Below, piece after piece: positions 52,157 through 54,064 of a stretch of 64,000 bases of DNA (positions are counted from its first letter, which is position 1; the number at the start of each line of letters is the position of its first letter). A program made the translations under genes and the position numbers. The notes beneath the pieces were generated by a model. That model worked only from the letters and a program-made list of their open reading frames with translations, had not been told where the DNA came from and did not search any database. The stretch covers positions 186,001-250,000 of the forward strand of contig CALTSZ010000001.1 in NCBI GenBank assembly GCA_943908435.1, read 5' to 3'. The DNA comes from an uncultured Staphylococcus sp. (GTDB taxonomy: Bacteria > Bacillota > Bacilli > Staphylococcales > Staphylococcaceae).

Positions 52157-54053
52157 TATTTAACCTCCTCGAATTTATTCGAATACCACTTAGACTTTTT
52201 ATTACCTTGCACTGTTCTTATCAATATTTCTGCAGGCGCAGTCATATTATTACGTCTTAATTCTTCAAAATATTGATGTTCAGACATTTTTATACGTGTA
52301 AACAACCAACCTGCTACACCCTTATACTTCGACGGAAAGTCAGATATTTTTTTAGTATCTTCTGTTGTTAAATAAAAAGAGAGACCTGGGATATTTAACT
52401 CTTCCAAACTTGTTATATTATTTGGAATTGTCTCCCACATCTCTCCGGAAGTTTGTATATAGCTCCATTTAGATGCTTGTTTTGTGAAAGTATTAATAAA
52501 TCGTTCGAATGATAATTTATTTCTACCGAACGAATTACGAGTTAATACTTGGCGTAGCACCCCATTATTATTTTGTGGTAAAACATCTAAATAATAACCA
52601 TAACCATTCATTAGTTTACTACCTGGAAAATCAGTTATCGATCTAGTGTCTTCTGCGTATAAATAGTAATGACCCATTTCATTAACTTCAGTTAAGCTAT
52701 TCATATTTTGTGTGTTAAGCGGTTTAACACGGCCACCGCTATCAGTTGCTAATATAGGTGTCGCTCTGCTTTTTAATAAATCATTAATATTACGTTGAGC
52801 TACGGAATAAATACTGTGCTGTCTATTATTACCAGGACCGACAGTTACTCCTATTAATAACGCTTTACGTTCAGTATCTTTATCATAGTACATTGCAAGC
52901 CCTTCAGCTTCTTGGAAATTACCTAAATATTGTTTATCATAACCACCTATAGTTACTTCTCTTTTCCATAGCTCTTCTCCATTTTTTACATTAAACGCAA
53001 TTAAGTAATTAGGATTCGTAGGATTAGCATCCCCAGTATACCAGTACAATATACCGTCATCATATGTCATACCTTGCATAGGTTGTATATTATTTGAGTA
53101 AGAAATAGGTATATCAATTCTATGAATCACCTTATTAACACGATTATCGATATCTGTAGCTTTTCTGATTTCAACATAATTCAATACATTTGTTCGATTT
53201 CTTTCATTTACATCATTTTCAATTCTAAAAATGAAATAATCTTCCTTAGAATTATAAATAGGAACAATGTATTTATCTGAACTATAACCAGTAAACACTT
53301 CTTCTGTGTCAGAATACTTTATTGTTCCCGCTCTATATTTAAATCGAACAACTTTAGGGTTACCTTTGTTATCTTTAATATGACTATAAATCCATAAACT
53401 ACCACCTATATATCTATAGGCGTTATGCGTACCATGACCGCCACCTTCAACTTTAAGTCTATCAATAAAAGCACCATTAGGGCTTAATCGAGTTAACATG
53501 TAATCACTGTTACCTGCTAAACCTTGTGTCATATAAATTAACCCTGTTTTTGAGTCAATCCAAAATGATTGCATAACAGCATTAGTTAAAGGTGCTAAAT
53601 TAGTAATAAATTGCATTTCTTGCTTATCTGGTTCAAAGCGAAATTCTATCTCTTTAAATTCTTTTTTTGTCTTTTCCACTTTATCAATCAATTTTTCTTT
53701 CTCAAGTGAAAACTTTTGATAATCAGTTAATAAGCGATCATGCAAAGTTGGATGTACCTTACCATAATTATCTACACGAGCATCTTTTACTTCATTAATA
53801 CCATCTCCATTATGACCTAGAACTAAATTATCCACTCGGCCATTTAATCTTAAGAATTCATCATGAGCATTTGTATCAATGTGTTTAATTTGTTCTGACC
53901 GATGCGCCTCTTTTTGAGAAGTAGAATGTTTTTTTTGTATTCCAAATTAGACTTCATGAACTTATTAATTACATTAAAATTGTACTGTAATTGTGCAATA
54001 AACTTTTGACTAAAATAGGCATGTAAGATTTCGATTAACTTATTTATTTTAAT
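52156..54053 (-). pseudogene. receptor-binding protein (phi11 Gp45-like), split by a -1 frame change at an A8 tract
   Basis: The main open frame (559 codons from a GTG at 53835) has the phi11 Gp45-like layout: N-terminal stem, a beta-propeller platform rich in W/Y-G-G, and two tandem tower repeats marked by YAEDTRSITDFP and TTEDTKKISDFP. The frame stays open upstream of that GTG to 53947, but the expected N-terminal coil (KINKLIEIL-HAYFSQKF, Q-L-Q-Y-N-F) lies in another frame from about 54053. The two join by a -1 shift at A8 (53929-53936). Joined, the protein is about 632 aa, close to the 636 of Gp45. The upstream frame has no ATG near GAGGGGG; an ATT at 54053 is the likely start. Confidence 0.82.
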
Positions 54054-54064
54054 AGCCCCCTCTA

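What the first reader, a model, noticed from the sequence alone, without database searches (positions are those of the whole stretch)
53836..54060. Receptor-binding protein split at an A AAA AAC slippery heptamer: deletion, or an expression switch?
The N-terminal coil of the Gp45-like receptor-binding protein and its body are in different frames. They meet at A8 (53929-53936). In the upstream frame the codons are TAC AAA AAA AAC ATT, so the last two A-site/P-site codons form A AAA AAC, a canonical -1 slippery sequence. A -1 shift makes the next codon CAT and continues exactly into the body frame. A loss of one A from A9 would give the same appearance. If functional, the phage would make mostly a ~65-aa stub and a small fraction of full-length adhesin, or could phase-vary by slipped-strand replication.
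Basis: partly seen in the sequence, partly recalled or inferred. Interest (0 to 1): 0.72.

Follow-up and report, generated by a model that had tools for sequence, protein, structure and literature searches.

The report
Prophage adhesin gene broken at A-run
In a prophage of a bacterium that is likely a Staphylococcus, the gene for the protein predicted to grip the host cell is split into two reading frames at a run of eight A's; the 13 related genes whose DNA was compared keep one frame there, so this is most likely an ordinary inactivating mutation in a decaying prophage rather than a programmed switch.

Summary
In detail: on the minus strand the stem and the body of a Gp45-type receptor-binding protein (RBP) lie in different frames that meet at A8 (53929-53936), with A AAA AAC in the stem frame. 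The switch reading is not supported. In 13 of 13 homologous loci compared as DNA the frame runs straight through this point, with no A-run above 7. No structure stands out after the run (z 0.61, 0.00, -0.23). The prophage's own tail-chaperone slippery site, a positive control, is kept in 4 of 4 relatives holding that gene. Assembly error is unlikely (no internal indel in 277,759 bases against a same-species genome). Best reading: a slipped-strand mutation giving a predicted null or near-null RBP in a prophage losing function. Phase variation or weak rescue by slippage stays open: no second DNA copy of the tract was found, and the RBP cluster occurs on 11 contigs.

The parts
53850..54053 (-). 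Stem (N-terminal) frame of the RBP from ATT 54053 to its stop; 67 codons plus stop. Alternative start ATA at 54047 (65 codons)
   Evidence: upstream piece matches homologue residues up to 40
54056..54062 (-). Shine-Dalgarno-like GAGGGGG before the stem frame
   Evidence: Sequence; assignment by eye
53929..53936 (-). Run of eight A where the two frames meet
53928..53934 (-). A AAA AAC heptamer in the stem frame
53836..53928 (-). Body-frame stretch between the run and GTG 53835 (31 codons, second part of the stem)
   Evidence: scores above all 500 shuffles with 10 of 15 homologues
52156..53835 (-). Body of the RBP, 559 aa from GTG, propeller domain PF21311; no Shine-Dalgarno by eye before the GTG
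54065..55900 (-). Tal (tail-associated, GDSL-type C-terminal domain), gene upstream of the RBP, intact
43649..45118 (-). Endolysin of the same prophage, interrupted by an in-frame stop after 297 codons
60637..60643 (-). U UUU UUC in the tail-chaperone gene, used here as positive control for a conserved slippery site
42214..42289 (+). tRNA-Arg (anticodon tct) beside the prophage edge at about 42294

Best explanation
The receptor-binding-protein gene of this prophage is split at a run of eight A's by what is most likely a slipped-strand length mutation that would leave the phage with no, or almost no, working adhesin. Shown: the two frames, the run, single-frame relatives, no ATG/GTG/TTG start for the stem frame at its ribosome-binding site, and an in-frame stop in the endolysin of the same prophage. 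Inferred: strand slippage in replication as the cause; a short stub made from a weak start, perhaps with a little of the body; a prophage impaired in adsorption and lysis. The body piece from GTG 53835 would lack the stem end by which the 80alpha homologue is held by Dit, so it would probably not be built into the baseplate even if made.
For: Homologues: 9 of 9 strong full-length matches in 84 genus genomes other than the own one are open for 638-652 codons without stops, the own frame for 596; 11 of 11 loci compared as DNA have one frame, an in-frame ATG near its opening and a longest A-run of 4-7 in the first 75 codons; the 119 other listed proteins of 316 are 626-647 aa. No structure after the run. 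Not conserved, whereas the chaperone site is, 4 of 4. Stem frame has only ATT/ATA starts. Endolysin of the same prophage has an in-frame stop. 80alpha RBP deletion abolishes infectivity and its N-terminus binds Dit (PMC7048315, passages); Gp45 of phi11 is essential for infectivity (PMC4876445, passages).
Against: The identical body stands for a cluster of 2 sequences on 11 contigs, the longest (483,486 bases) longer than any contig of the truncated endolysin's cluster (322,427), so this RBP form also occurs away from that endolysin. The body is open over its whole length. Except for the endolysin and RBP, the prophage proteins that matched families look full length. AUU and AUA starts do work in S. 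aureus at about 10% of AUG (PMC13009471, passages), so the start may be attenuated and not broken. Loss of function is not tested.
Confidence: 0.72

Rival explanations
1. Reversible phase variation: the run changes length at a raised rate and would toggle the adhesin on and off between lysogens.
For: A-run of 8 in the 5' part of the gene; homonucleotide-tract phase variation is described for agrA and mapW of S. aureus (PMC7911514, passages); the RBP cluster is on 11 contigs.
Against: No copy with another run length was found: the flank pattern with a free gap has 0 matches in viral contigs and genome contigs, where near records may be left out; homologues lack the run; the start of the frame is non-canonical too. 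No same-species copy of this prophage was available (G092 has none).
Confidence: 0.12
2. Slippage rescue: ribosomal -1 frameshifting at A AAA AAC, or RNA polymerase slippage at A8, would make a little full-length RBP from this allele, programmed or not.
For: Heptamer in the right phase and the -1 frame runs into the body; one survey lists A-runs longer than 7 among transcriptional slippage sites and A AAA AAC among its consensus heptamers (PMC3711429, passages); 8 A may be productive in some IS elements (PMC1088944, passage).
Against: Run and junction not conserved; folds after the run no better than shuffles; no upstream Shine-Dalgarno-like stimulator by eye; A AAA AAC weak in E. coli (PMC5009743); 8 A called non-slippery and 9 the usual threshold (PMC1088944, passages); one homologue (L020) has A AAA AAC in frame without any junction.
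Confidence: 0.1
3. Assembly or sequencing error in a homopolymer.
For: The break lies exactly in a homopolymer.
Against: 46 mismatches and no internal indel in 277,759 bases aligned to a same-species assembly, though the prophage itself is absent there; the 559-aa body represents a cluster on 11 contigs; the start codon and the endolysin stop are not homopolymer errors.
Confidence: 0.04

Closest known systems
Receptor-binding proteins phi11 Gp45 and 80alpha gp61
   Same: PF21311 propeller; the body aligns over residues 2-550 with 5efv and 6v8i; the stem pieces match the stems of relatives in the family; same place after Tal
   Different: Those genes are single frames with ATG; here the stem is in another frame and has only ATT/ATA starts
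Programmed -1 frameshift of the phage tail chaperone (G/GT)
   Same: A slippery heptamer in phase; such a site is present in this prophage (60643-60637)
   Different: The chaperone site is kept in 4 of 4 relatives holding the gene; the RBP junction is in none of 13 loci compared
Homopolymer phase variation (S. aureus agrA, mapW) and transcriptional slippage pseudo-pseudogenes
   Same: An A-run inside a coding sequence sets the frame
   Different: No variation between copies could be seen here; the run is 8, below the usual threshold of 9 for transcriptional slippage (PMC1088944, passages)

Membership tests
Gp45/gp61-type RBP | Propeller domain PF21311 and similarity to solved RBPs | tested here: met
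   PF21311 E 1.1e-86; 5efv E 3e-191
Gp45/gp61-type RBP | N-terminal coiled stem continuous with the propeller | tested here: not met
   Stem pieces are recognisable but lie in two frames
Programmed -1 ribosomal frameshift | Slippery heptamer in the zero frame, -1 frame leading into the second ORF | tested here: met
Programmed -1 ribosomal frameshift | Site conserved among homologues | tested here: not met
   0 of 13 loci have a frame junction here; control chaperone site 4 of 4
Programmed -1 ribosomal frameshift | Downstream structure | tested here: not met
   z 0.61, 0.00, -0.23; pseudoknots not modelled
Programmed -1 ribosomal frameshift | Upstream Shine-Dalgarno-like stimulator | tested here: inconclusive
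   None seen by eye in the sequence before the run; no scored test made
Transcriptional slippage gene | Run of about nine or more A/T, conserved | tested here: not met
   Run is 8 and not conserved; 8 may suffice in some bacteria (PMC1088944; PMC3711429)
Phase-variable gene | Tract length differs between copies or colonies | not testable with these tools
   No second DNA copy found
Disrupted (pseudo)gene | Homologues intact in one frame | tested here: met
Disrupted (pseudo)gene | Further lesions in the same gene or element | tested here: met
   Endolysin in-frame stop; non-canonical start of the stem frame, which could also be attenuation
Disrupted (pseudo)gene | No functional product | not testable with these tools
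   Needs proteomics or particles from the strain

The most novel reading that the evidence does not exclude
A tract-controlled phage adhesin: the A-run together with a weak AUU/AUA start keeps the receptor-binding protein off in most lysogens, and slippage in replication or expression turns it on in a few. The occurrence of this RBP cluster on 11 contigs, at least one of them without the truncated endolysin, would be its signature: a phage that hides its host-binding device stochastically.
Probability: 0.1. Interest if true: 0.65.

Novelty: new member of a known kind. Interest (0 to 1): 0.2.

Why it matters
As a broken gene it is an ordinary case of prophage decay and a warning against calling a frameshift switch from one genome. 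It also gives a clean contrast inside one prophage: a conserved slippery site in the tail-chaperone gene, and a look-alike in the RBP gene that fails the comparative test. If the tract did vary between isolates, it would be a homopolymer-switched staphylococcal phage adhesin; in three searches (listings, plus passages of PMC10877375, PMC7911514 and PMC4546147) I saw no report of one, but that library misses most subscription journals.

Tried and rejected
Stub as a conserved small protein: no homologue found. Internal start for the body: GTG 53835 has no Shine-Dalgarno by eye. Assembly artefact: made unlikely by the same-species comparison and the multi-contig cluster. Closer relatives as DNA: none by the search for related loci in viral contigs or genome contigs nor by flank pattern; the tools say that near records may be left out. 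I first took an A8 in the chaperone gene (heptamer at 60571) for its slip site and folded the stretch behind it; one search showed that the conserved site is U UUU UUC, so that fold is no control. The fold behind U UUU UUC was not made. Two phages whose RBP matched in several pieces (R4, JS02) have breaks elsewhere (frame open for 199 and 245 codons from the N-terminal side), so they do not support a conserved junction. Two homologues (L023, L045) escaped the motif script and were counted. Piece alignment was not significant throughout: of 15 homologues (P0001 dropped, it lacks the stem), the upstream piece beat all 500 shuffles with 8, reached 0.002-0.004 with 2 and 0.056 or worse with 5; the downstream piece beat all with 10, reached 0.002-0.01 with 3, and 0.044 and 0.168 with the other 2.

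Full report
What is there. The window ends inside a tailed prophage on the minus strand. Its edge lies beside a tRNA-Arg gene; a same-species genome, G092, has the empty site, and the inserted stretch spans about 41.9 kb of the contig. In the window the gene order is head, tail tube, tape measure, Dit, Tal, RBP, BppU-type fibre, cell-wall hydrolase, collagen-like fibre, holin, endolysin.

The observation. The RBP body (52156-53835, 559 aa from GTG) carries the propeller domain PF21311 and aligns with the phi11 and 80alpha RBP structures. Upstream, another frame encodes the start of the stem. The two frames meet at A8, 53929-53936, with A AAA AAC in the stem frame. Searched apart, the upstream 41-residue piece scored above all 500 shuffles with 8 of 15 homologues and the downstream 31-residue piece with 10 of 15; against P0002 the first covers residues 5-40 and the second starts at 42. 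The gene is therefore complete apart from the frame change.

A missed feature. The stem frame has no ATG, GTG or TTG between its last upstream stop and 53957; behind the GAGGGGG there are only ATT (54053) and ATA (54047). In all 11 unbroken homologous loci an in-frame ATG lies near the opening of the frame. AUU and AUA starts gave about 10% of the AUG reporter signal in S. aureus, up to 30% for one AUA in rich medium (PMC13009471, passages), so the stem could still be started weakly. This is either a second lesion or an attenuated start.

Homologues. In 84 genus genomes, 28 match the body; the 9 strong full-length places other than the own one are open for 638-652 codons without stops, the own frame for 596. 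Compared as DNA, 11 of 11 loci (2 phages, 9 genome loci) have one frame and a longest A-run of 4 to 7 in the first 75 codons; one (L020) has A AAA AAC in frame with no frame junction. Of 316 protein relatives 120 were listed; the 119 other than the own one are 626-647 aa long. In the phage collection 354 records match the body, 280 of them with one place over at least 80% of it; I saw 40 rows and opened two that matched in several pieces, whose breaks lie further along. That makes 13 of 13 compared loci open through this point.

Positive control. The tail-chaperone pair of the same prophage has U UUU UUC at 60643-60637. Of 5 loci given, 4 hold the gene, and all 4 have this heptamer in frame, 48 codons before the stop, with the -1 frame open for 167-168 codons; the fifth, the phi11 RBP locus, gave no match. 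A likely real programmed site thus passes the conservation test that the RBP run fails.

Structure and run length. Three stretches after the run fold no better than shuffles (z 0.61, 0.00, -0.23). In 87,840 codons of 268 ORFs, sense A-runs of 8 occur twice and of 9 once; A AAA AAN in frame occurs 40 times, A AAA AAC 3 times. The heptamer alone is not rare enough to signal function; the long run is a plausible slippage spot. One survey puts the usual threshold for selection against transcriptional slippage at nine and calls eight non-slippery, with Deinococcus and Nostoc elements as possible exceptions (PMC1088944, passages); another lists A-runs above seven among slippage sites (PMC3711429, passages), which tells against leaning on this point.

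Sequencing error. Against G092, 277,759 aligned bases show 46 mismatches; the only gap is at the edge of the prophage. The prophage itself is not in G092. The identical 559-aa body represents a cluster of 2 sequences on 11 contigs, longest 483,486 bases, longer than the own contig of 322,427. The second member's length is not shown, so I cannot say that every copy is split.

A second broken gene. The endolysin is one frame with an in-frame stop after 297 codons; the pieces fill phrog_635 positions 1-277 and 301-463. Its three best matches elsewhere in the genus are open for 483-498 codons. The truncated endolysin's cluster is on 8 contigs, the longest of 322,427 bases, so the 483,486-base contig with the RBP cluster does not hold it. 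Either this RBP also sits in another phage background, the main point against simple decay of one copy, or that contig's lysis gene falls in another cluster.

Mechanism. Most likely the run changed length by strand slippage in replication and put the stem out of frame (inferred). The product would be a short stub from a weak start, perhaps with a little of the body. In 80alpha the RBP N-terminus is bound by Dit, and RBP deletion abolishes infectivity (PMC7048315, passages). So the prophage would be adsorption-defective and, with its endolysin stop, lysis-impaired (both inferred).

Verdict. Observation confirmed; programmed switch not supported; a disrupted prophage gene is most likely (0.72). 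Phase variation (0.12), slippage rescue (0.10) and sequencing error (0.04) stay open until DNA of the other contigs or reads from the strain are seen.

Noticed in passing
window 43649-45118 (-): Endolysin (CHAP, amidase, SH3) interrupted by an in-frame stop after 297 codons.
   Followed up: yes
window 54045-54053 (-): The RBP stem frame has only ATT or ATA as start candidates behind a GAGGGGG; similar starts are known in S. aureus infC, ccpN and cvfC1 (PMC13009471).
   Followed up: partly
window 60637-60643 (-): Likely programmed -1 site U UUU UUC in the tail-chaperone gene, kept in 4 of 4 related phages holding the gene.
   Followed up: yes
window about 60564-60571 (-): A second sense-strand A8 in the same prophage, inside the unbroken chaperone gene.
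   Followed up: no
window 42214-42294: Prophage edge beside tRNA-Arg (tct); a same-species genome has the empty site with an 18-base overlap of the flanks.
   Followed up: partly
window 45564-47120 (-): Collagen-like fibre: BppU-type N-terminus followed by a long Gly-X-Y stretch.
   Followed up: no
L096 and L097: Deposited phages R4 and JS02 have their RBP gene in pieces at other places; mutation or sequencing error is open.
   Followed up: partly
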